Origin: a virus
Length of the DNA: 64,000 bases
Direction: 5' to 3' (one strand)
IMG/VR virus record: IMGVR_UViG_3300009160_000036
Coordinates: 1 to 64,000 of that record
Every line of letters starts with the position of its first letter. The first letter of the stretch is position 1. Of the stretch, positions 2,846 to 62,891 are shown in pieces. The translations under genes and the position numbers were made by a program. The notes under the pieces were generated by a model, which saw only the letters and a list, made by a program, of their open reading frames with translations, was not told the DNA's origin and searched no databases.

Positions 2846-3478
2846 ATGGCACGAGGTTATTCAACAGCACGCTCCGAGAGCGCCCTCCGCAGTCTGGGCG
2901 GTGGCTCTGACGAAATCGCATCTTATCGGCAAGCCCGGAGACTCGACAAGGAATACCTTGGTGCTACCAAGGAGCTCCGCTCGCTGATTAAGGACAAACG
3001 CGTCTACATCGGCGATGAGCTCACAGCCTTCATTGACTCGAAGAACCTAGAACTGAGCAAGGTGAACGCACAAGACGGAAACTTCTACAAGGAGGTTGCC
3101 CGCATTACGAAGGAAATCGAAGCCAAGGTAGCCAAGACCCGCGCCGAGTTCGGCGTGCTGGGTGACCTGCCGGTGTCCTATCCGAGACAGGATGCACAAA
3201 CCCTGCGTCGTTATTATGACGACACGATGGTTCAGATGGCATACGTGAAGGGTCCGGAAGACACCAAGGCATCTGCCGGCAAGCAGGTCTTCATCATCGG
3301 CGACCAGCTCCGCAAGGGCGACACTTTTAGCTTCAAGGACAAGGACGGCAACAAGGTCAAGGTGGACATGGTGGGCGCGGGCAAGCCGCTGAAGGACATG
3401 CCTAACCTTGAAGCGGGCATCGACTTGGGAACACCCGTCTACATCCTGCCGGAAGAATACTTCAAGCGAGGCGAATAA
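2846..3478 (+). CDS. leader-family protein 1 (MARGYSTARSE)
   Basis: 210 residues with leader form MARGYSTARSE. The rest is a charged helical region followed by a beta-rich C-terminal domain from about residue 145 (QVFIIGDQLRKGDTFSF ... PVYILPEEYF). No known domain recognised. A GTGGACA box sits at 2824-2830, 15 nt before the ATG, and there is no Shine-Dalgarno. It ends in a TAATG overlap with the next leader gene. It lies inside the IbrA/IbrB-like pair. Confidence 0.85.
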   Translation: MARGYSTARSESALRSLGGGSDEIASYRQARRLDKEYLGATKELRSLIKDKRVYIGDELTAFIDSKNLELSKVNAQDGNFYKEVARITKEIEAKVAKTRAEFGVLGDLPVSYPRQDAQTLRRYYDDTMVQMAYVKGPEDTKASAGKQVFIIGDQLRKGDTFSFKDKDGNKVKVDMVGAGKPLKDMPNLEAGIDLGTPVYILPEEYFKRGE

Positions 3479-4035
3479 TGGCGCGAGGTTACTCACAGTC
3501 GCGTAGCGAGCTTACGGCTCAAGACCTCGCCGACAGGGAAGCGGCAGCTGAACGCGGCACCGGTCGCATCAGCGATAGAAACAAGATGCGTGCGGACATG
3601 AACAAGCGCTTCTACGAGAATGCGGAAATTATCAGGTCGGCATACGAAATCGCATCCGAGGTGCATGCCACCCAAACTCGCCGGGATGGAGCTCCTTACA
3701 TGCAGCACGTCCTAGAAGTGGCAGACGGCACCAGAGGCCCCAAGGCTCGGATGGTAGCCCTCTTGCATGACACAATGGAGGATGGCGGCATCACCAGAGA
3801 GCAGATGGTCGCCAAGGGCATCCCGGCAGATGTGATAACGGCGGTGGAAGCCTTGACGCGTCCCCCGAAGTCGGAGCAGAAGATGACTTACCAAGAATAC
3901 ATCGAGAGAGTGGTGAAGCCTAATGAGCTTGCCCGCCAAGTGAAGATTGCGGACTTGAAGTCCAACCTGAAGAACAACGACAATCCGGGTCAGGTGAAGC
4001 GGTATGAGCGAGCTCTGAAAGCGTTGCTTCCATAA
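3478..4035 (+). CDS. leader-family protein 2 with RelA/SpoT-type HD hydrolase domain
   Basis: 185 residues with leader MARGYSQSRSE. Residues about 60-165 match the HD hydrolase half of RelA/SpoT proteins: H63 in EVHATQTRRDGAPY, H77 in MQHVLEVAD, H97-D98 and E101-D102 in LLHDTMEDG, and D159 in VKIADLKSNL. All metal-site residues of the family are present; synthetase and regulatory domains are absent. Such stand-alone domains hydrolyse (p)ppGpp or related nucleotides. If the leader targets the virion, this enzyme could be delivered at infection to lower host alarmone. The activity is inferred from motifs; delivery is a hypothesis. Confidence 0.88.
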   Translation: MARGYSQSRSELTAQDLADREAAAERGTGRISDRNKMRADMNKRFYENAEIIRSAYEIASEVHATQTRRDGAPYMQHVLEVADGTRGPKARMVALLHDTMEDGGITREQMVAKGIPADVITAVEALTRPPKSEQKMTYQEYIERVVKPNELARQVKIADLKSNLKNNDNPGQVKRYERALKALLP

Positions 4036-4057
4036 TAGTGAACTGACGGTCACTATT
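4034..4057. terminator. 8-bp inverted repeat, terminator or operator
   Basis: AATAGTGA and TCACTATT are separated by 8 bases, directly after the stop of the HD-domain gene. No clear T-run follows on the plus strand (TTCTCTTG), so it may be a weak terminator, an operator or an mRNA 3' stabiliser. Confidence 0.45.
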
Positions 4058-4101
4058 CTCTTGCGTCATACGCCGCCCCCTTTAAGCATAGGGCTTCCCT
4101 T

Positions 4102-4776
4102 ATGAGCGCCCCACAGAAAAAAGAGCCGGTGGAGGACATCCAATGGATAGACGTGGATACCCTTTCGGCTAATCACTACAACCCCAACCGAGTTATGAAC
4201 GCGGAGATGAACTTAATCGAGAAGTCCATTCTTCGCACCGGATGGATTCAACCCATCCTCGTCAATAGGAACAACCGCATCATTGACGGCTTCCACCGCT
4301 GGACGCTTTCCAGACTGTCCTCGCAGCTCCGGGAGCGGTATCATGGCAAGGTGCCTTGCGCCATCCTCGATGTCTCCGACGCGGAGGCGATGATTATCAC
4401 AGTCCGCATCAACCGTGCAAAGGGCACACACCTAGCGTTCCGGATGAGCGATTACGTCAAGGAGCTGGTGGAGAAGCACAACATCACCCTCGAATACCTT
4501 GCGGGCGAAATCGGTGCGACGATGGATGAGGTCCTGTTGCTGATGCGCTCGGATATGTTCGAGCACAAGGATGTGAAGAATTGGGCATACTCGGAAGCTT
4601 GGTTTCCGGCAGAGTCAGGCAGAACCCGCCTACCAACGCTGTGGGACTTCCAAGAAGGTGGCGAGGTCATTAAGAACAAGGAGCGCCAGACGATGATGGG
4701 CGAGAAGTTTGGCTTTGGTGCGACTGCCGTCGACCCGGATGACGAAGAGGACGAAGACGAGGAAATCATGCGATGA
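4102..4776 (+). CDS. ParB/sulfiredoxin-fold nuclease-like protein, IbrB-like
   Basis: 224 residues. The N-terminal part has the ParB-type signature: IDVDTLSANHYNPNRV, then GWIQPILVNRNNRIIDGFHR, close to the ParB/Srx core (QPI.V......IIDG.HR). It lacks a ParB-like centromere-binding HTH, and its C-terminus is a very acidic tail (DPDDEEDEDEEIM). Family members include ParB CTPases and IbrB, the partner of IbrA, whose homologue is at 1736-2821. The stop overlaps the next gene's start (ATGA). Confidence 0.82.
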   Translation: MSAPQKKEPVEDIQWIDVDTLSANHYNPNRVMNAEMNLIEKSILRTGWIQPILVNRNNRIIDGFHRWTLSRLSSQLRERYHGKVPCAILDVSDAEAMIITVRINRAKGTHLAFRMSDYVKELVEKHNITLEYLAGEIGATMDEVLLLMRSDMFEHKDVKNWAYSEAWFPAESGRTRLPTLWDFQEGGEVIKNKERQTMMGEKFGFGATAVDPDDEEDEDEEIMR

Positions 4777-15757: not shown

Positions 15758-16351
15758 ATGGCAAGAGGCTACTCACAGTCCAGAAGCGAAAGCGCCCCCG
15801 ATGGCAGAGCCAAATGGGAAGCGATGCAGGGCAAGAAGAGCATTGAAGCTCTTGCCCGCGTCAAGACCCGCCTTGGCAATGGCGACGTGGGCAATGGCGT
15901 CCTCGCAGATGGGAAACTGACCCTGCGCGACGATGACATCAAGTATCTCACGGAGAGCATGATTGGTCCCAAGAACGAAATCTCCGACATGTTCGACGAA
16001 GGCTATCCCGGTAAGACTAATTACAGGGCATACGACGCGGTGCAAACCCTCCACTTCTATCCCGAAAACACCGACAAGTTCGCTGGCGACATGGCTGGCT
16101 ACATCGAGTCTGCCGCCTTCAAGCTTGAACCTAGAGACTATACCAACGACGCCAACTCTGGTGAAGCATACAATCCGGGCAGGGAGTTTGTCGAAGTTGA
16201 CCCAGAGGTCCTTCAGGCAGACTACTTGTTCGCATTTGGCGTCGAGCTGGATGACAACTCGGCGAAGCGCCTAGCAGAGTCGTTCCGGGAAGCCCTTGGC
16301 GAGTCCATCGAGCAGTGGGCTGAAGACCGAGAAGAAAGACGGAGACGCTAA
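15758..16351 (+). CDS. leader-family protein 3 (MARGYSQSRSE)
   Basis: 197 residues with the perfect leader consensus, followed by a mixed, mostly helical and acidic body and a very basic end (EDREERRRR). No domain recognised. A GTGGACA box at 15736-15742 lies 15 nt before the ATG. First gene of the largest leader cluster. Confidence 0.85.
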   Translation: MARGYSQSRSESAPDGRAKWEAMQGKKSIEALARVKTRLGNGDVGNGVLADGKLTLRDDDIKYLTESMIGPKNEISDMFDEGYPGKTNYRAYDAVQTLHFYPENTDKFAGDMAGYIESAAFKLEPRDYTNDANSGEAYNPGREFVEVDPEVLQADYLFAFGVELDDNSAKRLAESFREALGESIEQWAEDREERRRR

Positions 16352-16354: not shown

Positions 16355-16912
16355 ATGGCACGAGGATACTCACAAGCAAGGTCTGAAAATCTTGATGCTG
16401 GATACAGGCTCAAGACTTTTGGCGAGAACGAGAAGCAAGGTCGGGTAGAAAAACTTGACCGGCTCGTCGAGGGGAAATACATCACCGCCAAGGCGGCCGA
16501 GGTTCTTAAGGAAGACGGGTCGCAACATGATGGTCGTTATTACAATGAGTCCTCCTTAAAAAGGACGTTTGGAAAAGACTTTTTCAAAAAGGGTTGGGTT
16601 CAAGAAAAGAGTGACTTCATCCCCAATGCCGTGATAGAGTGGAAGAATCTTGGTGGACAAATCTTTTACAAGGTTAAAGACATAGAGATGTTCGGTGGCG
16701 TGCCTTACCAGAAGGACGGCAAGTATGTCGGAATGACCTACCTTATGTCGCTTGACGAAAAGGTTCTTGCCGAGAACGGAGGCAGATACAAAACGATTAA
16801 AGAGGCGATTGATGTTCTGGAGACAAACAGCCAGATTTCCCAAAAGCAGTCGGGCGATGCAATGCAGTCTGCATACGAAGCTGCTGGAAGCCCTCGTGGT
16901 TGGTGGGAGTAA
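16355..16912 (+). CDS. leader-family protein 4 (MARGYSQARSE)
   Basis: 185 residues. After the leader comes a helical region and then a beta-rich segment (GGQIFYKVKDIEMFGG ... YVGMTYLMSL). No domain recognised. Three bases separate it from the preceding stop; there is no ribosome-binding motif. Confidence 0.83.
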   Translation: MARGYSQARSENLDAGYRLKTFGENEKQGRVEKLDRLVEGKYITAKAAEVLKEDGSQHDGRYYNESSLKRTFGKDFFKKGWVQEKSDFIPNAVIEWKNLGGQIFYKVKDIEMFGGVPYQKDGKYVGMTYLMSLDEKVLAENGGRYKTIKEAIDVLETNSQISQKQSGDAMQSAYEAAGSPRGWWE

Positions 16913-17541: not shown

Positions 17542-18102
17542 GTGGCACGCGGTTATTCACAATCCCGGTCGGAGTCCAGCAATGCTAAAGCGGAAGCTGT
17601 CCGGGCACAGCGTGCTTCTGATGAAGTCACGTTCTCCAAGCTGGCTTCTGGGACAGACTTTCAAATGTTTGACAGTGAGGACCTAGTGGTCGGCGAGAGC
17701 GTAAAGACTCTCAATGACCTTGAGACAAAGATAGCGGATTTATTTGGCAGCGAAGACCCAGAGGACATTTATTCGAGCTTCACCGCTGATTTCATTGATA
17801 ACAACCCGGAGTTTATCAAAGAGCTTGATAAGGCCAGAGAAGGTGCTTATGAAGGCGGTAAGGAAGAAACTCCTTCTATCTATCAATCCTCTACTGCAAC
17901 CGAGCAACGTTTTGATTACTCTTTTGGCGACGGGTCAAGTGGCACCTACACAACCATCTTAAAGTTCCCCGGCGCGCCGTCTATTGAGATGAAATGGTCT
18001 GTTGAAATGAGCGTATCATACGATTATGACTATAAAAGAGACGAAGAGAACGAAAGCATCTCCTACCGAACAAGGGTAAAAAACGTAAGAATACTAACAT
18101 AA
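17542..18102 (+). CDS. leader-family protein 5 (GTG start, ARGYSQSRSE)
   Basis: 186 residues. The leader is perfect but the start codon is GTG, showing that the peptide rather than the exact DNA is retained. Acidic helical middle, then a beta-rich C-terminal third (TYTTILKFPGAPSIEMKWSV). TAATG overlap with the next gene. Confidence 0.82.
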   Translation: MARGYSQSRSESSNAKAEAVRAQRASDEVTFSKLASGTDFQMFDSEDLVVGESVKTLNDLETKIADLFGSEDPEDIYSSFTADFIDNNPEFIKELDKAREGAYEGGKEETPSIYQSSTATEQRFDYSFGDGSSGTYTTILKFPGAPSIEMKWSVEMSVSYDYDYKRDEENESISYRTRVKNVRILT

Positions 18103-18818
18103 TGGCACGCGGCAACTCCACACGGCGCAACCTTGCGCCCGAAGACATCTCCAAGCTCATCCGGGGAGACAAGACCGCATTGCAGGCTAATGCCGCCAAG
18201 GGTGGTAATGCTCCTGCCGCACAGCCCAATCCTACGGCTCCGGCAGCGACAACACCCACTCCGGTTCCGCAGAACCCGAATGTTCCCACCACTATACCCC
18301 TGACGCAGGCAGAGGTTGATGCAATCAAGGCAGAGTTTGCTGCCGACGAAGCCAAGGAAGTCGCCTTCAAGAAGTATTTCCAGAACCTACAAGACAAGGC
18401 AGAGTTTGACTCCGAGCAGGCAGCCGAAGCTGCACGCGAAGCCGCGTTTAAGGCTTACGTTGAAGGTCAGAGAAGTCTTGCCGAAGCTGCGGCTCTCGCC
18501 TCGCCAAAGAACGCTCAAAAGGCAGGACTCGCCAATGCCAACAAGGAAGAAAAGGGCAAAAAGAAGGAAAAGAGCGGCAAGGAAAAGGCAGGCGAAAAAC
18601 CGTGGTATCTCCGCTCTGGCAGAGGTCCGGGAAGCATTTTATTTGGTCGTGGCAAATCGGGCAACATCAATGAAATTAGCACAGTTGGTGGTGGTGCAGA
18701 AGAGTTTGCGGTGGAAGCCTTGAACAACCTACGGAAGAAGGCGGGCGTCTCCAAGAACTTTCTTCTGGGCAAGGCAGGCCCCTCTGCCCCATCAGCTCCA
18801 TCTGGTCCCTCGAAGTAA
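18102..18818 (+). CDS. leader-family protein 6, degenerate leader (MARGNSTRR)
   Basis: 238 residues. The leader is only partly kept (MARGNSTRRN; no RSE). It is followed by a Pro/Ala/Thr-rich linker (about residues 35-65), an Ala/Glu-rich helix and a Lys-rich stretch, ending SAPSAPSGPSK. Low-complexity composition suggests a disordered or structural protein. Confidence 0.78.
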   Translation: MARGNSTRRNLAPEDISKLIRGDKTALQANAAKGGNAPAAQPNPTAPAATTPTPVPQNPNVPTTIPLTQAEVDAIKAEFAADEAKEVAFKKYFQNLQDKAEFDSEQAAEAAREAAFKAYVEGQRSLAEAAALASPKNAQKAGLANANKEEKGKKKEKSGKEKAGEKPWYLRSGRGPGSILFGRGKSGNINEISTVGGGAEEFAVEALNNLRKKAGVSKNFLLGKAGPSAPSAPSGPSK

Positions 18819-18842: not shown

Positions 18843-19490
18843 ATGGCACGTGGTTATTCCCAATCGAGGTCGGAAGATTTGCGCGAACGTAATGAGTTAC
18901 GTGAAGCCGACAAGCCCCAGACGCCCCCCAAGGGAATTAGCGCCAAGCAGATTGATTCTATCTCTGACCCCCTAATCAAGGCGTTGGTCAGACAATCTCC
19001 CATTCTTCCTTCCAAGAGTCCAAGAAATCCCGGAGATAAGGATGTTCTGCCTCTGGATGCCATCTTTGAGTCGGTTTCGGAAGCCATCCCGTCGACCGAT
19101 TTCCTTGAAAAGGAATACAGCAATCGAGCTAAGGCAGCCTATGCTGCTATTGCAACGGATATGCTTGAGCTTAACCTGCTTCAAGCGGAACGCGCTGGTC
19201 GCGTCCGGGCGGCAGCCGAGTATGGTCCCAAGGACGAGGAAGAAGTGGCGGCTCGTATGGACAAGCAAATTGCCGAAATCAAGTCGTCCCTTAAGGACAA
19301 CATCCGTGACCTAGATGAGCAGACGGGCGGCGAACTTGGCATTAAGAGCATGGTTCAAGACTTGGCATACCAGATTACCCAAGGCGTGAGAAACGGCCTT
19401 GAAAAGGGCAATGGCAAGAAGTATGCCCCCACCGAAACGAGAGAGCGCAAGAAGCAGCTCGACTCACTCTACAACTTTATTAGCCAATAA
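18843..19490 (+). CDS. leader-family protein 7 (MARGYSQSRSE)
   Basis: 215 residues, perfect leader, then mostly long charged helices. No domain recognised. A GTGGACA box (18820-18826) sits exactly 16 nt before the ATG. Confidence 0.84.
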   Translation: MARGYSQSRSEDLRERNELREADKPQTPPKGISAKQIDSISDPLIKALVRQSPILPSKSPRNPGDKDVLPLDAIFESVSEAIPSTDFLEKEYSNRAKAAYAAIATDMLELNLLQAERAGRVRAAAEYGPKDEEEVAARMDKQIAEIKSSLKDNIRDLDEQTGGELGIKSMVQDLAYQITQGVRNGLEKGNGKKYAPTETRERKKQLDSLYNFISQ

Positions 19491-19899: not shown

Positions 19900-20559
19900 A
19901 TGGCCAGAGGATACGGAAAAGCCGGCAGCGAATCCCAAGCATATGGCGGCAGGGGTTCTGGCGGCGTTAATTGGATTATTAGCAAGGATGCCCACGACAA
20001 TCGCATCGAAGACAACATCAAGAGCAACGCGTATGGCCCTACGCTCAGGGGCAACCTTGGCAACGATGTGGCTGTTGCCAAACAAGCCGTCTTAAAGGAT
20101 GCTCAACGCAAAGAGCTGATTGACCAGAAGTTTGAAGCCAAGGAGAAGGCCACCGCCCTCCGAGGAAAATTAAAAGACTTTGACTTTGAAGATGGAGACG
20201 CTGTGGATGCCGCCCTACCTCGCTATCCGGGCGAACACGGTAAGGACATCTATCAGATGTTTGACGAGTCTCTGGATAGCCGAACGCGTGCCGCCATTGA
20301 CCGTGATGAGCGCCGGCAAGCCCAAGACGATGGCGTCGGGGGTGGCGATGGATACTCCCGCAGAGCGGAAGAGTTTGCCAAGTTCACCAAGGAGCTGCTT
20401 ACGGAAAGAACGGCCACCACGTCTTCCTCTTTTCAGTATCAGCGAGACGGCATCGGTGGCATCATCGCCCAATACAACCGAGACATCTTCAAGCGAGAGA
20501 AGGACATCTTCAACGATGCGGAGAATAAGGTGTATCGCTCGCAGAACCCCGAAGCTTAA
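19900..20559 (+). CDS. leader-family protein 8 (MARGYGKAGSE)
   Basis: 219 residues. The leader is diverged in the middle but keeps MARGY and SE, followed by a Gly-rich spacer (SQAYGGRGSGGVNW) and a charged helical body. An ATG 11 codons upstream is in frame but overlaps the previous gene. Confidence 0.83.
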   Translation: MARGYGKAGSESQAYGGRGSGGVNWIISKDAHDNRIEDNIKSNAYGPTLRGNLGNDVAVAKQAVLKDAQRKELIDQKFEAKEKATALRGKLKDFDFEDGDAVDAALPRYPGEHGKDIYQMFDESLDSRTRAAIDRDERRQAQDDGVGGGDGYSRRAEEFAKFTKELLTERTATTSSSFQYQRDGIGGIIAQYNRDIFKREKDIFNDAENKVYRSQNPEA

Positions 20560-20562: not shown

Positions 20563-21054
20563 ATGGCACGTGGCTACTCCAGTGCTATGACCGAATCGGA
20601 ACGCGTCATTACGGGCAAGAAGACAAAGCCTAGTGACCCGGCATACGAGCCTGTCCAGATGGATGGCGACTTGGTGCGCCGCAAGAACGGCTTCAAAGCC
20701 CCGCAGCTCCAACCCGACTTTAAGCCAGATAAAGTGTATGCGGAGATTGGAATGAAGTATCTCCGCGCCGACCAGAAGCTTACCGACCAATCCCCCTCCG
20801 AGAACATTAAGGAGAATGACCCCTATTGGTTCATCGCGGCCGCAAAGGAAACTCCGCGCCAGCGTTGGCTGGAAATCGGAGATGAAGGCATCCGTGCCAA
20901 CCTGCGTTCGGCTGGATTCAAGGATTGGGCTAATGTCGATGGAGTTGGACCTGACCGGTTGATGGCATCTTGGATGCTCAACTCGAAGTTCTTTGACCTT
21001 TCTGGCAAGGTTCCGGTGCAGATAGCGCCTATCCCGAAGACGTTCACCAAGTAA
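20563..21054 (+). CDS. leader-family protein 9 (MARGYSSAMTESE)
   Basis: 163 residues. Leader variant with Glu at 11 and 13. The body is alpha/beta with an aromatic segment (DPYWFIAAAKETPRQRWLEIGD). No domain recognised. Convergent with the minus-strand gene at 21055. Confidence 0.82.
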   Translation: MARGYSSAMTESERVITGKKTKPSDPAYEPVQMDGDLVRRKNGFKAPQLQPDFKPDKVYAEIGMKYLRADQKLTDQSPSENIKENDPYWFIAAAKETPRQRWLEIGDEGIRANLRSAGFKDWANVDGVGPDRLMASWMLNSKFFDLSGKVPVQIAPIPKTFTK

Positions 21055-21773: not shown

Positions 21774-22556
21774 ATGGCGCGGGGTTATTCACAAAGCAAA
21801 AGCGAGCTTAACACCGATTATGGTCGGGAAAATCAATTGCTGAAAGAAGACCTTCCCCGGAATCCTATTATGAAGACCACCGTCGAGCAGGAGCGCGACT
21901 ATTGGCCGATGATTAGAAAGTTTTACGCCGATGAAGCCAAGGCAATAGACAAAGAATACAAGCCAATGGTAGCCAAGGTGAAGAAGCTCCCAGCCGACGA
22001 GCGCATTAAAGTAATGGGGGCTATTGAAAGATTGCAAGACCTAGTTGGGCAACATGTTAATCGCTACATGAGCGACATCAATGAGGGGCAATCTGGCAAC
22101 CTTGTTGAAATCAATCGGGCAGACACCTTAAAACAGAGGATTGTCGAGCGCATCGAGCAACTCCCAGAATGGGTCAGAAGCACGATGTATGCCCCGGCAG
22201 ATAAGATTGGAGAGCTTTCGAGGGGGGCAGATAGACCTACGCTTACTTCGGTTGAGGGCGGAGGCAATATTGGCTCATTTACCGACAGCCCAACCCAAGC
22301 TGCCAATTTTGGCAAAGGGACAGGGACTTATGGCATCCAGCGTTTCTACACAGCCAAGGACATCGACTCTTTTGACAAGATTATTGACCTCCAGAGAGTA
22401 GCCAGATTTGCCTATGCTTTTAGCGCCAATGAAGAGAACGACTTTATCAAAGAAACCGTTCGTGATGAGCGCGAGTATTTGGTTACTGGCATCAAGTGGA
22501 AAGAATCCACTTTAAAAGAGCAGATTGGGACTGAGCGGTCTAAGGCTACCATATGA
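21774..22556 (+). CDS. leader-family protein 10 with ADP-ribosyltransferase-like domain
   Basis: 260 residues with leader MARGYSQSKSE. The C-terminal half fits the R-S-E pattern of arginine-type ADP-ribosyltransferases: an Arg in ELSRGADRP (about residue 150), then GSFTDSPTQAANFG (about 167-180, the S-F-T motif followed by Ala and Phe), and an E-x-E-like DEREYLVTG (about 231-239). T4 Alt is an injected transferase carried in the head by a short N-terminal targeting peptide, so this protein suits the cargo idea well. The assignment is by motif order only; structure prediction would decide it. Confidence 0.8.
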   Translation: MARGYSQSKSELNTDYGRENQLLKEDLPRNPIMKTTVEQERDYWPMIRKFYADEAKAIDKEYKPMVAKVKKLPADERIKVMGAIERLQDLVGQHVNRYMSDINEGQSGNLVEINRADTLKQRIVERIEQLPEWVRSTMYAPADKIGELSRGADRPTLTSVEGGGNIGSFTDSPTQAANFGKGTGTYGIQRFYTAKDIDSFDKIIDLQRVARFAYAFSANEENDFIKETVRDEREYLVTGIKWKESTLKEQIGTERSKATI

Positions 22557-49209: not shown

Positions 49210-49458
49210 ATGCCCGCAAACGGATTATTTGTCGGTCTTCCCAAAGCTACGATTGAAGCCATTCGAGATAAGGCGGTTACGTTTATCCTAGAAGGCAAGA
49301 CTATCATGAGCTACGGGGATGGTTCCACGAATGCCTCGAAACAATTTGCAATGCCCCCGCAGCAGATGTTGCAGGAGGCAAATTACGCGTTGCTTCGGAT
49401 GGAAGGTGGCCGCACAAGAGGTCTTTACACGAACTACAATCGTCTCGTTGACCGTTAA
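49210..49458 (+). CDS. gpW-like head-tail joining protein
   Basis: 82 residues, with helices at both ends (KATIEAIRDKAVTFILEGK and PPQQMLQEANYALLRMEG). Size, helical pattern and position between the large terminase and portal match lambda gpW and its relatives that plug the portal. TTGACA at 49191-49196, 13 nt before the ATG. TAATG overlap with the portal gene. Confidence 0.72.
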   Translation: MPANGLFVGLPKATIEAIRDKAVTFILEGKTIMSYGDGSTNASKQFAMPPQQMLQEANYALLRMEGGRTRGLYTNYNRLVDR

Positions 49459-51197
49459 TGCCCCTCGAACCCCAGCCTAATCAAAAGCCGCCCGGACTCG
49501 TCGACCGACTCCGAGTTAGCTTGTCTAATCTTCTTAAGCCCAAGGCTTATCAGGGTGCGTTTGAGTCGACGCGTTACAGCGTCCACCGGACTCGTATCGA
49601 CGCTCCGCAGCCAACCGACTTCCGTCAGGAAATGTCGGGTTCGACTCGCCGAGAAATGGTGCGCCTATCGCGCTGGCTGGAAAAGAATAACGGCCTCTAC
49701 AAGCAGATGATTAAGGACACCGCCATTTACACGGTGGGCGAGGGTATCGGGCTTCAGTGCTTGGGTGGAGACTACGATTGGCAGAACGTTGTGGAAGCTG
49801 AATGGGAACAGGAGTGCCTGAACCCGGAAGTCGCTGGACGCTTCTCGATGCTGGAGTGCCTATTCATTATTTGCGAGGCGCTTGACCGAGATGGCGAAAT
49901 CTTTGCGATTAAGTGCAAGACGAAGAACGGCGGTCCGAAGTTTCAGATTATCGAAACGCACAGAATCGAGACTCCCCCAGACGCATCGTCGATGGTGGAC
50001 ATCTTTGATGGCATCAAGTTCGACAAGCTTGGCAGGCCGATAGCCTATTACGTCAAGCAGATGGATGGTAAGTTCCAGACCATTCCGGCGGCGTCTATGA
50101 TGCACATCTTTGACGCGGAATATGCGTCGCAGAGCCGAGCTTTCCCACCCCACCAGCACGCAATCAACAATTTGCGCGACGAGATGGACCTATTGGCGAT
50201 GGAGAAGGTCGCCGTTAAGGACAATTCCCGCACCTCCCGCATTCTCAAGGTCGAAGACCCGAAGATGGACATCGGCGATGTTGGTCTTGGTCAGCCGATG
50301 GGCGAAGGCAGCTCAACGACCGTGAACACCGACCCGGATGCGATGAACCGTATCCTTGGTGGTGTGACCGCAGTGCTCCAGAACAACGAAAGCTTGGTGT
50401 CCTATGCGTCAGCCAGACCCTCGTCGGCTTTTGCCGGATTTATTGACCACCTTCGTCGAGATTCGGTCATGGGCGGGCTTCCGTATGAGTTTGTCGCCGA
50501 CCCTGCGCGGGCAGGCGGAGCTGCTGTTCGATTGATAGTGGCAAAGGCTGGTCGATTCTTCACCCACCGTCAGACAGTCATCATCAACAGATTCCTACAA
50601 CAATACTTCCAATTCTGGTTGGGAATCAAAATCGAGCGCAAGGACGTCCCGAACGCAAAGAATTGGTGGAAGACCGAGTGGGTATGCTGTAAGTCGGTGA
50701 CTGTGGACGCCGGCAGAGAGGGGCAGAACGAAAGAGCTGACCTAGACATGGGCAGAACTCCGATTAGCGATGACTTCCAATCTCGTGGCTACAACTTTGA
50801 AAAGACAATGCGCAAGATTGCACGCGACAACGCGTTCATCCAGCGAGTGTCCAAGGAAACAGGTATCGCAGAGGACAAACTGTGGCGTAAGTCTCCTTCG
50901 GGAGGCGCAGGTGGTCAACCGGGCGGTCCGGGAGCGCCTAAGACAATCCCAGAGGGTGCATTGGGCATCGTTATGCCGGGGCCAGATGGTAATCCGCAGA
51001 TTGTTCCGATTGACCAGATTGCTGGCGCACAAGAAGGCGAACCGCCTGACCCGCTGACTAACACAGACCCAGAACTCAAAGCTCCTCCGCATCAAACAGG
51101 TTGGGTTCCAGCAGAAATGACGGATACTTCTGTTGACACATTGCCAAAACAGAATCCCGGTCTTTCCCGAAACCGAGAACAACCTTACCAACGATGA
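49458..51197 (+). CDS. portal protein (lambda GpB family)
   Basis: 579 residues. RREMVRLSRWLEKNNGLYKQ, TVGEGIGLQC, the long helical domain (RDEMDLLAMEKVAVKDNSRT) and PSSAFAGFIDHLRRDSVMGG are typical of lambda-type portals. Gly/Pro-rich disordered C-terminus. It forms the dodecameric vertex for DNA entry and tail attachment. Coupled to both neighbours by overlaps. Confidence 0.9.
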   Translation: MPLEPQPNQKPPGLVDRLRVSLSNLLKPKAYQGAFESTRYSVHRTRIDAPQPTDFRQEMSGSTRREMVRLSRWLEKNNGLYKQMIKDTAIYTVGEGIGLQCLGGDYDWQNVVEAEWEQECLNPEVAGRFSMLECLFIICEALDRDGEIFAIKCKTKNGGPKFQIIETHRIETPPDASSMVDIFDGIKFDKLGRPIAYYVKQMDGKFQTIPAASMMHIFDAEYASQSRAFPPHQHAINNLRDEMDLLAMEKVAVKDNSRTSRILKVEDPKMDIGDVGLGQPMGEGSSTTVNTDPDAMNRILGGVTAVLQNNESLVSYASARPSSAFAGFIDHLRRDSVMGGLPYEFVADPARAGGAAVRLIVAKAGRFFTHRQTVIINRFLQQYFQFWLGIKIERKDVPNAKNWWKTEWVCCKSVTVDAGREGQNERADLDMGRTPISDDFQSRGYNFEKTMRKIARDNAFIQRVSKETGIAEDKLWRKSPSGGAGGQPGGPGAPKTIPEGALGIVMPGPDGNPQIVPIDQIAGAQEGEPPDPLTNTDPELKAPPHQTGWVPAEMTDTSVDTLPKQNPGLSRNREQPYQR

Positions 51198-52201
51198 TTA
51201 GAAGCGACCTAACTTACGCCCTTTCGACGGGAAAACCCCTTCTCATCGACCCAATTAAGGCGAAGTCGTTTCTGGCTAATGCAAATGCAATTCTCTCTAA
51301 CCCAGAGCTTGCATATCTTTTGTCCCAGCACGTTTCTGGTAAATCCTATCAACCGAAGAAGGACGTTGGTCCCAAGGGTAAGCGTTTTGCGGCATCTGAA
51401 GACGACGATATGGACACGATGGCTGGCGCAACCGGCATTTCCGTCCCCACCCGCCCTTACATCCGTGATGGTATCGGGATTATTCCCGTCCGTGGGGTAA
51501 TCGGAAAGTGCCTTAGCCCTCTTGAGGCGATGCTTGGATGCGCGGACATCGACACGATTGCCAAGACCCTAGATGAGTGGAAGGACAACGATAACATCTT
51601 TGAGGTCATCCTTAACATTGATTCTGGCGGTGGTTCTACCACCGGATTAGAAGAACTTGCCAAGAAAATCCGCAATTACGAAAAGCCGACCATCGGTTTT
51701 TCGGATTCCGATATGGGTTCAGCCGCTTTCTGGATTGGCTCGCAGTGCAAACGCCTAGTGGTGACGTCCAGCTCCTCGATTGGAGCTTGTGGCGTCTACA
51801 TTACGATGAATGACGACCGAAAGAAGTATGAAAAAGAAGGCCGCGAGGTCGTAGTCATAAAATCCGGCAAGTATAAAGCGGCAGGCGTGGAAGGCACCAG
51901 CCTTACCCCTGACCAAATCAATGCCCTACAAGACGAAGTGGACGAGCTGCACCAACGGTTCATCCGTGACGTAGTGGCAGTCCGGCAGTTTGCGCACCTT
52001 GAAGACCTTCAGGGTCAGTCCTTCTATGGCGATAAAGCCGTGGCACGCGGACTATGCACGGGATTGGTGGACTCCTTCGAGGACCTCGTTGAAAGCATCA
52101 AGGCAACCCGCCGAGTGGCACAGAGAACTACACTCCCTTCCCTTTACTCCCAACCCACGTATCCTACCTCTTATGAGGGCATCCAACCGTACGGAGGTTG
52201 A
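51194..52201 (+). CDS. S49-family (SppA-like) prohead protease
   Basis: 335 residues. IIPVRGVIG and LNIDSGGGSTTGLEEL precede the serine nucleophile region DSDMGSAAFWIGSQC (Ser about 173) and the catalytic Lys in VIKSGKYKAAG (about 223), the Ser-Lys dyad of peptidase family S49 to which lambda gpC belongs. It processes scaffold and perhaps cargo leaders during head maturation. In lambda the scaffold is nested in this gene; here it is a separate gene downstream. Confidence 0.88.
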   Translation: MIRSDLTYALSTGKPLLIDPIKAKSFLANANAILSNPELAYLLSQHVSGKSYQPKKDVGPKGKRFAASEDDDMDTMAGATGISVPTRPYIRDGIGIIPVRGVIGKCLSPLEAMLGCADIDTIAKTLDEWKDNDNIFEVILNIDSGGGSTTGLEELAKKIRNYEKPTIGFSDSDMGSAAFWIGSQCKRLVVTSSSSIGACGVYITMNDDRKKYEKEGREVVVIKSGKYKAAGVEGTSLTPDQINALQDEVDELHQRFIRDVVAVRQFAHLEDLQGQSFYGDKAVARGLCTGLVDSFEDLVESIKATRRVAQRTTLPSLYSQPTYPTSYEGIQPYGG

Positions 52202-52230: not shown

Positions 52231-53898
52231 ATGAGCAATAAGTCCGTCGAAACCCAACTCAAGGAAGCCATCGAGGCCTCCAAGCAGACCCTCGCCCTCT
52301 CCGAACAGGTGACTTCGCTCGCCCAAGAGAAGGATGCGCTCTCGAAGCGCCTCGCTGAAATCGAAACTTCCCTCTCCTCCCCAAAGGCTTCCGAGCCGGT
52401 CGCAACCGACCCCCTCATCATCGCCAAGCTGGGAGAACTGCTCGCTGAACGCGAAGCCTCTGCCAAGCTGATTAAGGCTCTGTCCGAAAAGACCGACGCC
52501 GCCCTCGCCTATGCCACCAAGGTTGAGAAGGAAGCCGCCAAGAAGGCCGACCTCAACGAATACGTGAAGCAGAAGATTGAAGACGGCGAAGAAGGCAACA
52601 CCCCCGCAGAGAAGATTAACAACTCTGGCAAGGGTAAGTCCAAGGCCGAAATGCCCCAGTTCATCAAGGACAAGATTGAAGAAAAGGAAGAAGAGTCCGA
52701 AGAAGAAGCTTGTGGTCCTATGAAGTCCAAGAAGGGCAAGGCCAAAGCTGCCAAGGCCTCTTTCGATGACGAAGACGGCGATTTTGGTGACCTCGACGAC
52801 GAAGAAGTGATGCTCATCAAGCAGTATCGCAACTCGTCCAAGACGACCGCCAAGCCGAGCGCTGATTCGACCCTCAAGTCTCCCCTCAAGGAAGAGAAGA
52901 AGGATTTCGGCGACATTATCCCGCAACCCGGTCTCGACCCTAACAAGAACAACGTCAACAAGGACAACACTACCTCTACTGGTATTAAGCTCGCGTCCAA
53001 GGCCTCCAAGAAGGGCGAAACCGACGTTGAAGAAATCATGGAGTCTCCTGATGTCCAAAAGGACGAAGGCGAAGAACATACCCACGAGCAGACCCTATCC
53101 ACACCTGAAAAGGGTGCTAAGAAGGGCAAGAAGGCCGAAGAAGCTTCTCTCGAACCCCAAGCCGCTACTGCCGCCAAGGGCGAAGCCCTCCCGCAGGCCG
53201 TTATGGATTACATCAAGCAGCTCGTCGAAAAGGAAAAGCAGGCTAATTCCCTCCCCGGAATTGGCAAGCACGACGTTGTTGGTCAGCCCGACCAAGACGG
53301 CGAAGAGTCTGTCCTAAACAAGAAGGATGGCAAGAAAGCCGAGTCCATCGAAAAGTGCGTCAAGGACAACTGTGCTGACGATACCACCAAGGTTCACGAA
53401 GACGGCTGTGCCCCGACCAAGGGTAACACTACCCCTGTCGGCGACCTCCAGCCCCTCGCTGCCGAAGCCCCTAAGTCCTTTGATAACGTTGTCGAAGCCG
53501 CCGTTGAGCGTTTCGCCACGGTTGCCAAGGCAAAGAAGGAAGCCGAAGAACAGCTTTCCAAGATGGGCGAGACTCTTGCCCTCGAAAAGAACGCCAAGAC
53601 GGAAGCCTATGCGGCCGTTGCCCAGCTCCAAGCCAAGTTTGAAGCCCTGATGGGTAAGGTTGCCCAGATTGAAGCCTCTGACAAGTCCATCGAAATGAAG
53701 GCCGCCAAGATTGTCTCTGCCTCTGCCTCCGAAGCAGTGGCTGTGGGTATGGACTCTGCCGGTATCAAGACCGACCAAGAAGTGATGAATCAGTTCGAGG
53801 CTATCTCCGATGCCCGTGAGAAGAACAAGTTCTTCATGGCTAACCGCAAGGTTATCGAAGGCGTTGCGATGAGCAACCTCAAGCGTCGCTCCCGCTAA
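52231..53898 (+). CDS. scaffold/prohead core protein
   Basis: 555 residues, extremely rich in Lys, Glu, Asp and Ala with long coiled-coil stretches (EQVTSLAQEKDALSKRLAEI near the start, KKEAEEQLSKMGETLALEKN near the end) and low-complexity acidic and basic segments. Position between protease and capsid genes identifies it as the internal core or scaffold. Several Cys occur in two short clusters (KCVKDNCADD, DGCAPTK), unusual for scaffolds. It may bind leader-tagged cargo. Confidence 0.8.
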   Translation: MSNKSVETQLKEAIEASKQTLALSEQVTSLAQEKDALSKRLAEIETSLSSPKASEPVATDPLIIAKLGELLAEREASAKLIKALSEKTDAALAYATKVEKEAAKKADLNEYVKQKIEDGEEGNTPAEKINNSGKGKSKAEMPQFIKDKIEEKEEESEEEACGPMKSKKGKAKAAKASFDDEDGDFGDLDDEEVMLIKQYRNSSKTTAKPSADSTLKSPLKEEKKDFGDIIPQPGLDPNKNNVNKDNTTSTGIKLASKASKKGETDVEEIMESPDVQKDEGEEHTHEQTLSTPEKGAKKGKKAEEASLEPQAATAAKGEALPQAVMDYIKQLVEKEKQANSLPGIGKHDVVGQPDQDGEESVLNKKDGKKAESIEKCVKDNCADDTTKVHEDGCAPTKGNTTPVGDLQPLAAEAPKSFDNVVEAAVERFATVAKAKKEAEEQLSKMGETLALEKNAKTEAYAAVAQLQAKFEALMGKVAQIEASDKSIEMKAAKIVSASASEAVAVGMDSAGIKTDQEVMNQFEAISDAREKNKFFMANRKVIEGVAMSNLKRRSR

Positions 53899-53925: not shown

Positions 53926-54654
53926 ATGGCAAGAGGATTTGGCGGCGGTTATGCTCGTGGCACTAATGTCGCTACCGGTGAACTTATCGGTGGCGGTGCT
54001 GCGGGCGGCGGTGCTGGTGGCGTCCGTCGTGATGCCGAAGTGACTGCATCCCAGCGCTCGGTTTCTTCTGGTGGCGACGTCAAAGAGGCTATTGCCCGCG
54101 TCCAGAACGCTGGTGGTGGCGAGATTAAGCTGAACAAGGACCAAGTGGCTGATGCCCTATCGTTGCGCCGTGGCGTGGCTGTGGGACCGAATGGCGCTCT
54201 GATGCTTGATATGGGTAAGATTTCCAACTCTGACCTCCTCAAGGGGCAGATTAAGATGTTTGATGCCAATGGTAAGGAAATGAAGATGGAGCGCACCGTG
54301 ACCGTCCAGATTGTCGAAAACGGCATCTCTGGATTCCGCGTTGGCACTGCCGGTGGCACTTTCCAGCCTGCTCGTGCTAAGGCCGAAATCACCGAAGAGC
54401 AGCGTCAAGCTATTCTGGGTGCAAACCTACCGCTCCAACTCCGCGGCGCTCGCTTCAATCAGTCTGGCCAAATCAATGGCTTCAAGATTAACCCTGAGCA
54501 GTTTGATAAGCCGACGCGTGCGGTTCTCTACAAAAACTCTGGTCCCGATGGCACGATGCGTTTCTCGCCTAATTCTCCGGTTGGCAAAGCCCTTCAGGGT
54601 CAGCTCGGCGATAGCGGCATCAGCATCCAGAAGCTTAACAACCTCCTCGGCTAA
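53926..54654 (+). CDS. head protein in the lambda D position, leader-like N-terminus (MARGFGGGYARG)
   Basis: 242 residues. It begins MARGFGGGYARGTNVATG, a partial match to the leader without SE. A Gly-rich segment follows (GGGAAGGGAGGVRRD), then a compact beta-rich domain (GVAVGPNGALMLDMGKI ... RTVTVQIVENGISGFRVG). Located between scaffold and capsid genes, where lambda has its decoration protein, but more than twice that length. Likely a decoration or internal head protein. Confidence 0.75.
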   Translation: MARGFGGGYARGTNVATGELIGGGAAGGGAGGVRRDAEVTASQRSVSSGGDVKEAIARVQNAGGGEIKLNKDQVADALSLRRGVAVGPNGALMLDMGKISNSDLLKGQIKMFDANGKEMKMERTVTVQIVENGISGFRVGTAGGTFQPARAKAEITEEQRQAILGANLPLQLRGARFNQSGQINGFKINPEQFDKPTRAVLYKNSGPDGTMRFSPNSPVGKALQGQLGDSGISIQKLNNLLG

Positions 54655-54716: not shown

Positions 54717-55631
54717 ATGAGTAACACTCTCGGTGGTATTAACCTCCAAGTCATTGCGCAGGACAGTCTCACGACCCTCCTTGCTCAGTTCCCCTTGGTC
54801 AACAAGTTCACAACTGACTTCGGTGGAGACATTCTCCAGCGCGGTGAGTCCGTGACTACTCGCATCGCCTCTGGCGTTGCTGCAACTGACATTGCTGCCG
54901 GCGGCTACTCCCGCTCCAATGTCTCCTCCACGGCCAAGACCGTGACCCTGAACAAGCATAAGGGCTTCGTGATGGGCTTCGCTGATGGCGAAGTCGCTCG
55001 TGGCGGTTATGACGTTCTTCGTCGCACATTCATCCGCCCGGCTGCTCACGCTGTCGTCAAGGCGGTCATGGATGACGTCTTCCTCCTCTGCACAGCTGGC
55101 AATTTCTCCTCGACTGGCTACAATGGCACCGTTGCTGCTTTTGATGCTGACGCTGTTGCTGACATCTCGCAGGCCCTCACCGATGCCAACGTGCCTATGG
55201 CTGGTCGTACGCTTATCGTGCGTCCTTCCCTCTACACGTCCCTCGCTAAGGATAACTCGATTCAGGCGCAGTATGCTTCCGGCACCAATGCTCCTCTGAC
55301 CGAGAACCTTCTGCCTCGTATCCACGGCTTTGAAATCAATCAATACACGGCTCTGCCTAACGGTGGCGTCTCTGGTTTCGGTGCTCTCGATGCAAATCTG
55401 AAGGGTATCGCTGTTTCGCCTGAGGCCATCCTCATCGCGGCTCGTCTGCCTGCTACCCCGACCAACTGGTATGGTAACGTCGCTACTGCGACGGATGCTG
55501 AATCCGGTCTGTCGATTCAGGTTCGTGAGTGGTATGATGGTGACGCCGGCGAGCAGAAGCTCTCGATGTCCATCCTCTACGGTATGAGCGTCGGTAACGC
55601 CGCCTGCCTCTCGAAGATTATCGCTTCGTAA
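54717..55631 (+). CDS. major capsid protein (HK97 fold expected)
   Basis: 304 residues: FTTDFGGDILQRGESVTTRI, HKGFVMGFADGEVARGGYDV, a helix rich in Ala (PAAHAVVKAVMDDVFLLCTA), GRTLIVRPSLYTSLAKD, and a C-terminal IQVREWYDGDAGEQKLSMSILYG. The order of N-arm, E-loop, spine helix and P-domain strands is that of P22/N4-type HK97-fold coat proteins. Strong terminator follows. Confidence 0.88.
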   Translation: MSNTLGGINLQVIAQDSLTTLLAQFPLVNKFTTDFGGDILQRGESVTTRIASGVAATDIAAGGYSRSNVSSTAKTVTLNKHKGFVMGFADGEVARGGYDVLRRTFIRPAAHAVVKAVMDDVFLLCTAGNFSSTGYNGTVAAFDADAVADISQALTDANVPMAGRTLIVRPSLYTSLAKDNSIQAQYASGTNAPLTENLLPRIHGFEINQYTALPNGGVSGFGALDANLKGIAVSPEAILIAARLPATPTNWYGNVATATDAESGLSIQVREWYDGDAGEQKLSMSILYGMSVGNAACLSKIIAS

Positions 55632-60712: not shown

Positions 60713-60721
60713 AATTATCAA

Positions 60722-61237
60722 ATGGCACGAGGATACTCAAATGCACAAAGCGAGCGGCTTTCCCGCACCGTCAACGTCATCGCAATGATGGCCAAAGACA
60801 GGGGCATCGACCCCAGCTCAATGACCTTGGGTGCTGCCGAGAAGTTCGTCCTAGCACGTTACAATGCTCCGGGTGAGAGAGGTCGCTTCGAGGCAGACAA
60901 GACCACCCTCCGGGATGAACACGGCGAACAGTCCTTCGAGATGCGTGCCAATGGAATGCGTGCCCCTTCTTACTCCAAGTGGGTAAAGGACAAGGTGGCT
61001 ATGATGCTCTTCTCCGATAAGACCGCCAAGGACCGCGCCGACTTTGAAGCAACCCCTGAAGGTGCTGCCCTCCGAGCCACCAAGGAAGCCACCTACAAGG
61101 CTATGATGGCAAGGTTTGAGAAGGGTGCAGTCCAAATCCCTTACGAGGAACAGAGGAAGCTGGATGCCGCTAATGATGTGGCTGACAAAGCCCTTCGAGC
61201 CGCCCAGAGGAATTGGGAACGCCTTAACAACCGCTAA
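60722..61237 (+). CDS. leader-family protein 20 (MARGYSNAQSE)
   Basis: 171 residues. Helical and charged throughout, no domain recognised. It has its own promoter with almost no leader RNA, starting the third leader cluster within the late region. Confidence 0.84.
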   Translation: MARGYSNAQSERLSRTVNVIAMMAKDRGIDPSSMTLGAAEKFVLARYNAPGERGRFEADKTTLRDEHGEQSFEMRANGMRAPSYSKWVKDKVAMMLFSDKTAKDRADFEATPEGAALRATKEATYKAMMARFEKGAVQIPYEEQRKLDAANDVADKALRAAQRNWERLNNR

Positions 61238-61256
61238 TTGACAAGCCTACAAGAAT

Positions 61257-61871
61257 ATGGCCAGAGGATACTCCCAATCTCGTTCAGAAAATCCGACCCA
61301 GCGGCTTGATTCGCTCTCTCAACAACCCATTCCCAATGCTAATGCCGCATTGATTGGCAATGGTCTTGGGAGCGTTGAAAAGCTTGCCCTCGAACTTAAG
61401 GGCAGTCGCGCCTATGATGGCAACTATGAGACAATGAGCGACAAGGACATCGAAGAAACCGCCCAGCACGTCAAGGAAGTCAATGACAAGGCAAAGTCTG
61501 ATATCGACAAGCTTCTTGCCGGCGGTTGGGACGAAGACAAAATCCAGAAAGCTTATGAGATAAAATCTACTCTTTCAAAACTCTGGCAACAAAACGCCAC
61601 TCCTAATCCAAATGACCACTTTGCCCACGAAGCGGTAAACATTGACCGCATCGACATCACCGCCCGTGAAGTGAACGAATACAAGGAAATGCAGTATGAA
61701 ATCAACGAGCTTCTTATGGAGGACGGCCCTCAAGGAGGCGGGTTTGACGAAGGACGTCGAGTATCCAGCGACCGTGAAGACGAACTATCCAACGACATGG
61801 GTGACATTGAGCGTAAGTTTGTCACTCAACTCAAGGACCTTCGCACCCGAATCGAGAGGATTACCGGTTAA
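61257..61871 (+). CDS. leader-family protein 21 (MARGYSQSRSE)
   Basis: 204 residues with a perfect leader. Body all-helical and acidic. No domain recognised. TTGACA at 61238-61243, 13 nt before the ATG. Confidence 0.85.
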   Translation: MARGYSQSRSENPTQRLDSLSQQPIPNANAALIGNGLGSVEKLALELKGSRAYDGNYETMSDKDIEETAQHVKEVNDKAKSDIDKLLAGGWDEDKIQKAYEIKSTLSKLWQQNATPNPNDHFAHEAVNIDRIDITAREVNEYKEMQYEINELLMEDGPQGGGFDEGRRVSSDREDELSNDMGDIERKFVTQLKDLRTRIERITG

Positions 61872-61874
61872 TTT

Positions 61875-62891
61875 ATGGCAAGAGGATATTCCACCGCCCG
61901 CTCTGAACAGAGCGACGCTATGCGCAAAGAAGCCACTCGGCTTATTGATGCCGCCCAAAAGATTGAAGCCAAGGAGCGTGAGGATGCGGCCGCGAAAGCC
62001 ATCGCCGATGCGAAAGCCAAAGCCGAAGCCCTTGTTGCTTCCGGCAAGATTCCGACGGTAGACGAAGTGACTGCTGCTCAAAGGGCAGCCAATGCGTTTT
62101 GGGAAGAAAACAAGCCAGCGATTAAAACAGGCTTATACAACGCTAATGCTTGGGCGTCGGAAAAGGCATTGGCAAAGAAGTATCAAGCAATGGTCGAAAG
62201 AGTCCGAGAAATGGAAGAAGAACGAAAGGCCCCTGAAAAGCTCAAGGAGCTTGCCGATGCCGCCCTGCGCGACAAGGCCGAAAAGCAAGCCATAAATATT
62301 ACCAAAAAGGGCAACGACTCTGGCGACAAAGCCACAAACGAAGGCCCCAAGGCACAGAAACTTGCCCTCAAGGTCGAGAAGATTGCGACCAAGGCGTCCA
62401 TCGCCGCCGATAAATACTTTGGAGCGAAGGACAAGAAGGGCGTGAACGCCCAGAAGAACAAGGAGAAGATGAAGGAGCTCGTCGCAAAGCAGGTTAATGC
62501 TATCCCCTTGGAAGTCCGCATCGCCATTCAGCAGCTTTCGAGACACAACCTTGGACAAGACTTAATGGACGCCGGCGTTAACGCCCTCAAATACAACAAA
62601 TCGAGCGGAAAAATCGTTGGTGGCGAGGACCACGAGAACGGCCGAAATGGAGACGGTGCTTTTGAATACAGCAGTTGGGGTGCTTTACGCAACGAAGCCC
62701 GCCGTGAGGGTGTGGACCAGCGCGTTGGCAACGTCACCCACAAGGGTGTCACTTACAAGTGGAAGACGGAGGATTCATCCTACAAGATTGGCTGGGACCC
62801 GAAGCAGTTTGCTACCCACGGCAGAATTACAATCAGCGCCGGTGGTAAAACAATTTTCGAGGGCGAAGAATTGGGCATTGAAGGCGGCTGA
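61875..62891 (+). CDS. leader-family protein 22 (MARGYSTARSE)
   Basis: 338 residues, the longest leader protein. A long Ala/Lys/Glu helix (about residues 15-160), a second charged helical region and a beta-rich C-terminal domain (NVTHKGVTYKWKTEDSSYKI ... GRITISAGGKTIFEGEEL). Residues 12-50 resemble leader protein 11 (22929). Confidence 0.85.
   Translation: MARGYSTARSEQSDAMRKEATRLIDAAQKIEAKEREDAAAKAIADAKAKAEALVASGKIPTVDEVTAAQRAANAFWEENKPAIKTGLYNANAWASEKALAKKYQAMVERVREMEEERKAPEKLKELADAALRDKAEKQAINITKKGNDSGDKATNEGPKAQKLALKVEKIATKASIAADKYFGAKDKKGVNAQKNKEKMKELVAKQVNAIPLEVRIAIQQLSRHNLGQDLMDAGVNALKYNKSSGKIVGGEDHENGRNGDGAFEYSSWGALRNEARREGVDQRVGNVTHKGVTYKWKTEDSSYKIGWDPKQFATHGRITISAGGKTIFEGEELGIEGG

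What the first reader, a model, noticed from the sequence alone, without database searches (positions are those of the whole stretch)
2846..62891. 22 proteins share one N-terminal address peptide, consensus MARGYSQSRSE
Seen: genes starting at 2846, 3478, 15758, 16355, 17542, 18102, 18843, 19900, 20563, 21774, 22929, 29635, 30217, 30923, 31557, 32800, 33510, 34115, 34998, 60722, 61257 and 61875 all begin with this peptide or a close variant, then diverge almost completely. Arg, Tyr and Ser codons vary freely between copies (cga/cgc/aga, tat/tac, tca/tcc/agc) and one start is GTG, so selection acts on the peptide, not the DNA or RNA. Known: T4 internal proteins and Alt carry a roughly 10-residue N-terminal capsid-targeting sequence, removed after Glu by the prohead protease; phiKZ-type phages also cleave after Glu. 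Here Glu is the near-invariant last leader residue. Inference: a capsid-targeting tag for a large set of injected proteins, used with the S49 protease and scaffold at 51194-53898. I know of no described leader family this large.
Basis: partly seen in the sequence, partly recalled or inferred. Interest (0 to 1): 0.96.

Follow-up and report, generated by a model that had tools for sequence, protein, structure and literature searches.

The report
Shared shipping label on phage proteins
This uncultivated phage puts the same 11-residue label on the front of 22 otherwise unrelated, almost cysteine-free proteins, and its relatives do the same with their own private labels, which is best explained as an address tag that loads a large set of proteins into the virus head for delivery into the next bacterium.

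Summary
All 22 ORFs exist, and 19 end the leader with Glu at residue 11. Bodies share no BLAST-detectable homology, and conservation stops abruptly after residue 11. Synonymous codons are near-random, so selection acts on the peptide.

Relatives in IMG/VR (same portal and capsid genes) carry the same device with other sequences: MARGSNSREGRAARSE (15 genes), MATRSNKQSLASD (25 genes), MARGNNQSQSSVRSE and MARSYNKSSSANSVRSD. The common plan is a fixed start (MAR[GS] or MATR), a variable linker and a terminal Ser-acid. The acid is genome-specific: Glu in the window, Asp in G018. Homologous bodies in different genomes usually carry their own genome's tag (21 of 27 pairs).

Three further facts point to virion cargo. 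Tagged proteins are nearly cysteine-free (1 Cys in 4,687 residues, against 166 in 9,056 untagged); T4 internal proteins and P1 Dar proteins show a weaker form of this. A head-module protein between scaffold and capsid starts with the same residues in most lineages. Bodies include a T4-Alt-like ADP-ribosyltransferase signature.

Best reading: a capsid-targeting leader working like the T4 CTS but not homologous to it. Cleavage after the acid, perhaps by the S49 protease, is plausible but unproven. No virion data exist.

The parts
2846..3478 (+). tagged protein 1, leader MARGYSTARSE; ortholog in G011 has MARGTSRAQSE
3478..4035 (+). tagged protein 2, MARGYSQSRSE; HD phosphohydrolase-like body, ortholog in G011 66% identical
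15758..16351 (+). tagged protein 3, MARGYSQSRSE
16355..16912 (+). tagged protein 4, MARGYSQARSE
17542..18102 (+). tagged protein 5, GTG start, (M)ARGYSQSRSE
18102..18818 (+). tagged protein 6, degenerate leader MARGNSTRRNL; G006 homolog MARGRGAGRNALSE
18843..19490 (+). tagged protein 7, MARGYSQSRSE
19900..20559 (+). tagged protein 8, MARGYGKAGSE
20563..21054 (+). tagged protein 9, MARGYSSAMTE
21774..22556 (+). tagged protein 10, MARGYSQSKSE; R-S-E ADP-ribosyltransferase-like signature shared with five G018 tagged proteins; leader disordered in the model
22929..23663 (+). tagged protein 11, MARGYSQAKSE; body 64% identical to G006_40562, which has leader MARGQNASTGRTARSS
29635..30210 (+). tagged protein 12, MARGYSQSRSE
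30217..30897 (+). tagged protein 13, MSRGYSQSQSE
30923..31552 (+). tagged protein 14, degenerate MARGYYQASGT
31557..32342 (+). tagged protein 15, MARGYSQSKSE (the only window tagged protein with a Cys)
32800..33510 (+). tagged protein 16, MARGYAQSRSE
33510..34118 (+). tagged protein 17, MARGYSSAGSE
34115..34792 (+). tagged protein 18, MSRGYTTGVRGGFQARSE (long linker); JAB/MPN-like HxH...D motif seen by eye; homologs tagged in G006, G018, G030
34998..35366 (+). tagged protein 19, MARGYTKSNSE
60722..61237 (+). tagged protein 20, MARGYSNAQSE; homologs tagged in G006 and G015
61257..61871 (+). tagged protein 21, MARGYSQSRSE
61875..62891 (+). tagged protein 22, MARGYSTARSE
49458..51197 (+). portal protein (Phage_portal_2), used to find relatives
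51194..52201 (+). S49-family prohead protease, candidate leader-cutting enzyme
   Evidence: PF01343, 3.2e-18
52231..53898 (+). putative scaffold, charged, with a conserved C-terminal segment
53722..53733 (+). scaffold SASE motif; Glu in the SE-tag genomes, Asp in G029/G016/G017, Glu in G018; candidate shared cleavage site
53926..54654 (+). D-position head-module protein (between scaffold and capsid), starts MARGF, Cys-free, residues 1-31 disordered in the model; shares the tag's first residues in most lineages
54717..55631 (+). major capsid protein, P22-coat-like; N-terminus invariant across relatives, so probably not processed

Best explanation
The 11-residue leader is a capsid-targeting signal. 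During assembly the fixed N-terminal part (MARG-Y) docks on the inside of the prohead, most likely on the scaffold or capsid, at the site also used by the N-terminus of the D-position head protein. The ~22 tagged proteins are thereby enclosed with the DNA and enter the next host with it, where they act as early effectors (ADP-ribosyltransferase-like, HD hydrolase-like, JAB-like and many unknown). The Ser-Glu end (Ser-Asp in some relatives) is the likely point at which a head protease, probably the S49 enzyme, removes the leader. Shown: the peptide-level signal, its sharp end, its genome-specific form in relatives, cysteine depletion, and the shared start with the D-position protein. Inferred: packaging (about 0.75), injection (about 0.7), cleavage after the acid (about 0.55), S49 as the enzyme (about 0.45).
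For: Tag at 22 N-termini of non-homologous bodies; peptide-level selection and abrupt end at residue 11; 15 tagged genes in G006, 25 in G018, and smaller numbers in fragmentary contigs, each with its own tag. Homologous bodies carry their own genome's tag in 21 of 27 pairs. Terminal acid is strictly genome-specific (window 20/22 Glu, 0 Asp; G018 21/25 Asp, 0 Glu) while bodies use SE and SD equally. Tagged proteins are Cys-free in 21/22 against 4/34 untagged (Fisher p 1.8e-10); T4 IPs+Alt 0.28% against 1.27% Cys, P1 Dar proteins 0.30% against 1.00%; the tape measure protein and the D-position protein are also Cys-free. The D-position protein shares the tag's start: MARG with MARG tags, MARSY with MARSY tags, MATR with MATR tags. 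Leader disordered in both models. ART-like signature in T21774 and five G018 proteins parallels T4 Alt. Precedent: T4 IPs share only a leader that packages them (PMC12373910, PMC3012670); P1 DarB N-terminal 30 residues package mCherry (PMC9024508).
Against: No virion proteomics or cultured phage. The D-position protein lacks the tag start in G005 and G008-G010 (MPGSN, MPTYG) although their tags are MARG-type. The scaffold site reads AVE in G018 although its tags end in Asp, and Pro follows the acid in many relatives, which is unusual for a cleavage site. Four window leaders depart from consensus. Cys depletion also fits other export routes. The ART assignment rests on a motif; fold search gave no significant match.
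Confidence: 0.72

Rival explanations
1. The leader is an uncleaved capsid- or portal-binding peptide (an encapsulation or decoration signal). Tagged proteins are virion proteins, inside or outside the shell, but no protease removes the leader.
For: The D-position protein, which by position could be a decoration protein, shares the tag start. The capsid protein itself looks unprocessed. No cleavage evidence exists.
Against: The strict genome-specific Glu or Asp at the end of a variable-length linker is better explained by a second recognition event, such as cutting, than by docking alone. Outside decoration would not explain effector-like bodies.
Confidence: 0.2
2. The leader addresses proteins to an intracellular place or partner (replication site, membrane, host enzyme) and tagged proteins are never packaged.
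For: No direct packaging data. Tagged genes lie among early and accessory genes.
Against: Near-total cysteine loss in all 75 tagged proteins from many genomes (7 Cys in 16,930 residues), shared start with a head-module protein, and restriction to the capsid/portal clade that has this D-position protein family.
Confidence: 0.12
3. The shared start is a DNA or RNA element (translation control, recombination site, regulator binding) that happens to be coding.
For: Slight A-ending codon bias at residues 2, 6 and 7.
Against: Codon heterozygosity 0.65 against 0.68 expected; relatives keep the peptide plan with different residues and spacing.
Confidence: 0.02
4. The tagged genes are divergent paralogs of one family whose N-terminus alone is still recognisable.
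For: G018 has several tagged ART-like paralogs and G015 two pentapeptide proteins.
Against: No window body pair matches at E<1e-3; bodies belong to different kinds (HD, pentapeptide, GNAT); tag follows genome rather than body descent.
Confidence: 0.03

Closest known systems
T4 internal proteins IPI-III and Alt with the capsid targeting sequence (CTS)
   Same: Short N-terminal leader shared by unrelated Cys-poor bodies; Glu ends the leader (MKTYQEFIAE in ipII/ipIII); an ADP-ribosyltransferase among the cargo.
   Different: Leader sequences unrelated; protease is S49 rather than T4 gp21 type; 22-25 tagged genes per genome against three IPs in T4; relatives end in Asp; P22-like capsid and lambda-like gene order.
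Phage P1 Dar system (DarB N-terminal packaging signal)
   Same: N-terminal signal sends large cargo proteins into the head (PMC9024508); Dar proteins are Cys-poor.
   Different: Dar proteins share no consensus leader (PMC9024508); six proteins only.
SPN3US and phiKZ-type ejection proteins
   Same: Many head-packaged ejection proteins; cleavage after an acid (AXE motif, PMC7411985).
   Different: Long propeptides (124-130 residues in the abundant ones) and a T4-related protease; no short common leader.
Verrucomicrobia phage P8625
   Same: Nearest cultivated relative by capsid (33% identity), portal and terminase.
   Different: 32.9 kb, protease gene directly followed by capsid gene, no D-position protein, no shared leader.

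Membership tests
T4-type CTS / internal proteins | Short N-terminal leader common to otherwise unrelated proteins | tested here: met
T4-type CTS / internal proteins | Leader homologous to MKTYQEFIAE | tested here: not met
   T4 leaders read from AF158101; no resemblance to MARGYSQSRSE beyond a terminal Glu
T4-type CTS / internal proteins | T4 gp21-type prohead protease | tested here: not met
   The head-module protease is Pfam S49
T4-type CTS / internal proteins | Leader removed after Glu in the prohead | not testable with these tools
   Only indirect support: genome-specific terminal acid, candidate scaffold site
T4-type CTS / internal proteins | Proteins present in virions and injected | not testable with these tools
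   No virion data; indirect support from Cys depletion
P1 Dar proteins | Homology to DarA/DarB/DdrA/DdrB/Hdf/Ulx | tested here: inconclusive
   Pfam and PHROGs scans of 75 tagged proteins named no Dar family; many PHROGs have no name
Lambda-type head module (S49 protease, scaffold, D, capsid) | Order terminase gpA, portal, S49 protease, scaffold, D-position protein, capsid | tested here: met
Lambda gpD decoration proteins | Fold of gpD | tested here: inconclusive
   Model mean pLDDT 67, no significant PDB match
ADP-ribosyltransferases (T21774 and five G018 proteins) | R ... S-x-[ST] ... ExE triad | tested here: met
   Invariant R150 and E234, with the S-F-[TS] motif in most
ADP-ribosyltransferases (T21774 and five G018 proteins) | ART fold | tested here: inconclusive
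   Rifampin ADP-ribosyltransferase ranks 2-3 but E 2.5-3.8

The most novel reading that the evidence does not exclude
Each phage lineage uses a private packaging code: a peptide label and its reader (scaffold, D-position protein, protease) have co-diverged, including a Glu-to-Asp switch. About a fifth to a quarter of the genome can then be devoted to interchangeable injected effectors, and cargo of co-infecting relatives is not loaded.
Probability: 0.3. Interest if true: 0.92.

Novelty: new variant of a known kind. Interest (0 to 1): 0.82.

Why it matters
If right, this is the largest known set of phage proteins sharing one packaging label, in a phage lineage unrelated to T4 by leader and protease. 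It would let anyone list a phage's injected arsenal from sequence alone: tag plus cysteine absence. It supplies dozens of candidate host-takeover or anti-defence proteins, most with no Pfam match, and several unrelated natural label sequences for loading foreign proteins into heads. The genome-specific tags make label-reader co-evolution directly testable.

Tried and rejected
Chance similarity: rejected. DNA/RNA element: rejected by codon diversity. Shared folded domain beyond residue 11: rejected by entropy, BLAST and disordered leader in models. D-position protein as a known decoration fold: no match. ART assignment by PDB sequence profile or fold search: no significant hit, so kept as a motif-level statement. 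First G006-type pattern had the wrong spacing and found nothing; the corrected one worked. Host by prophage or contig in 84,980 genomes: portal and capsid both found nothing. Basic charge of cargo (as I recall for T4 IPs) is not a general feature here: pI is mixed.
Full report
CHECK OF THE OBSERVATION. The window is positions 1-64,000 of a 78,596-bp IMG/VR virus record, G000. All 22 ORFs start where stated. Twenty score 29-54 against MARGYSQSRSE, while shuffled windows reach 23-28. The two lower-scoring starts (18102 and 34115) still begin MARG or MSRG. Glu is residue 11 in 19 of 22. Conservation collapses right after it: entropy is 1.05 and 0.79 bits at residues 10-11 and 2.95 or more from residue 12. 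Among copies of the same residue, codon heterozygosity is 0.65 against 0.68 expected, so the peptide is selected. Window bodies have no BLAST homology to one another at E<1e-3.

RELATIVES. A portal search of IMG/VR gave 28 loci and a capsid search 35, all uncultivated. In contigs with portal identity of 68% or more and enough sequence, the same device appears with other letters. G006 (43 kb) has 15 genes with MARG[SNQ]..GR[AST]ARSE. G018 (74 kb) has 25 with MATRS...SD. G015 has four with MARGNNQS.SVRSE. G029 has two with MARSY...RSD. G011, G005, G008-G010, G012 and G013 (partial or fragmentary contigs) show one or two each. L071/G030 is a further G006-type genome. The more distant relatives examined (portal about 60% or less) show no such repeated leader, nor does the cultivated phage P8625.

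ANATOMY OF THE TAG. Across genomes the plan is bipartite: fixed start (M-A-R-[GS] or M-A-T-R), a linker of variable length, and Ser plus an acid. The leader is 11 residues in most window genes, 18 in 34115, about 14-19 in G006 and 13-19 in G018. The acid does not mix within a genome: window 20 Glu and 0 Asp, G018 21 Asp and 0 Glu (two rows that the script scored SE, 7894 and 62919, end in LKSD and LRSD), although SE and SD are equally common in the bodies. This strictness suggests a partner that tells Glu from Asp, as a protease would.

TAG FOLLOWS GENOME, BODY FOLLOWS DESCENT. Among 28 pairs of homologous bodies in different genomes, 27 could be compared. In 21 the tag is closer to its own genome's tags than to the homolog's tag; for example body 22929 and G006_40562 are 64% identical but have different leaders. 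The exceptions involve atypical leaders (18102, 34115, 34998, 72204) or close tag types (2846, G012_8440). These pairs are not fully independent: they fall into roughly 13 body families.

CYSTEINE DEPLETION. Tagged proteins in the window hold 1 Cys in 4,687 residues; 34 untagged ones hold 166 in 9,056 (21/22 against 4/34 Cys-free, Fisher p 1.8e-10). All 75 tagged proteins together have 7 Cys in 16,930 residues. Known head cargo behaves similarly but less strongly: T4 IPI-III plus Alt 0.28% against 1.27% for other T4 genes sampled, P1 Dar proteins 0.30% against 1.00%. The tape measure protein (973 aa here, 883 aa in G018) and the D-position protein are also Cys-free, while terminase, portal, protease and capsid are not. 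I read this as adaptation to leaving the reducing cytoplasm and passing through the tail; that reading is inference.

LINK TO THE HEAD. The head module is terminase gpA, portal, S49 protease, scaffold, D-position protein and P22-like capsid. The D-position protein begins with the same residues as its genome's tags: MARG with MARG, MARSY with MARSY, MATR with MATR. The exceptions are one group (G005, G008-G010) with MPGSN or MPTYG. Its first 31 residues are disordered in the model. A database scan with this family returned only contigs of the tagged clade. In the untagged sister clade the protein at this position starts with a longer motif (for example RTYYATGTGRF), and in some genomes two neighbouring proteins share it. 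A plausible history is that the capsid-binding N-terminus of this head protein was co-opted as a cargo label; this is inference.

CLEAVAGE. The scaffold has a conserved motif just before its C-terminal segment: SASE or SVSE in most Glu-tag genomes, TAHE in G005, QGVD or QGID in G029, G016 and G017, but AVE in G018. It may be the same protease's site, but the G018 mismatch and a following Pro in many genomes weaken this. The capsid N-terminus is invariant, so the capsid itself is probably not cut.

CARGO. Most bodies have no Pfam match. Recognised are HD domains, pentapeptide repeats and a weak GNAT, with JAB/MPN-like motifs seen by eye. T21774 and five G018 proteins share an R...SF[TS]...ExE signature of ADP-ribosyltransferases with invariant R150 and E234, the kind of enzyme T4 Alt is. 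Fold search was not significant.

COMPARISON WITH THE KNOWN. T4 internal proteins share no homology except a leader that packages them, and related phages have at least 10 reported (PMC12373910). T4 IPs and Alt carry a roughly 10-20-residue CTS that is removed by gp21 (PMC7411985). P1 DarB has an N-terminal signal, but Dar proteins share no consensus (PMC9024508). The present system works like these but fails two membership features of the T4 family: leader homology and protease family. I therefore class it as a new variant of a known kind.

LIMITS. No virion data, no host, fragmentary relatives, few independent lineages, and predicted structures of moderate confidence.

Noticed in passing
53926-54654 and the same place in L019, L024, L027, L029, L032, L052, L055, L111-L119: A Cys-free head protein between scaffold and capsid with a disordered N-terminus; in sister phages without tags it begins with a conserved RT[FWY]-rich motif, sometimes on two adjacent proteins.
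   Followed up: partly
55907-58627: A 906-aa protein with 34 cysteines in repeated motifs, right after the capsid gene: the opposite of the cysteine-free cargo. Possibly a virion surface protein.
   Followed up: no
L055 7894-8598; L057 14705-15625; L058 3473-4114, 5280-5912, 5919-6545: G018 carries five tagged ADP-ribosyltransferase-like paralogs, an expansion of one effector type.
   Followed up: partly
L039 and L040 (G027, G028): Two large neighbouring proteins beginning MPTEEGDKR with JAB/MPN-like HTHP motifs, in relatives that lack the short tags.
   Followed up: no
G023 (contig IMGVR_UViG_3300042868_007474) 37058, 37703, 39992, 41725, 43960: Five short ORFs begin MHTV(S), perhaps a repeated DNA element around start sites rather than a protein tag.
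   Followed up: no
L027 2623-3501 and 3508-4374: Tandem tagged pentapeptide-repeat proteins; such proteins can mimic DNA, so they may be injected inhibitors.
   Followed up: no
upstream of 18843, 22929, 30923, 32800 and 53926: Starts are often preceded by ...ACT directly before ATG with no clear Shine-Dalgarno sequence, in the window and relatives alike.
   Followed up: no
44-338: Three adjacent tRNA genes (Met, Arg-tct, Gln-ttg) at the window's left end.
   Followed up: no
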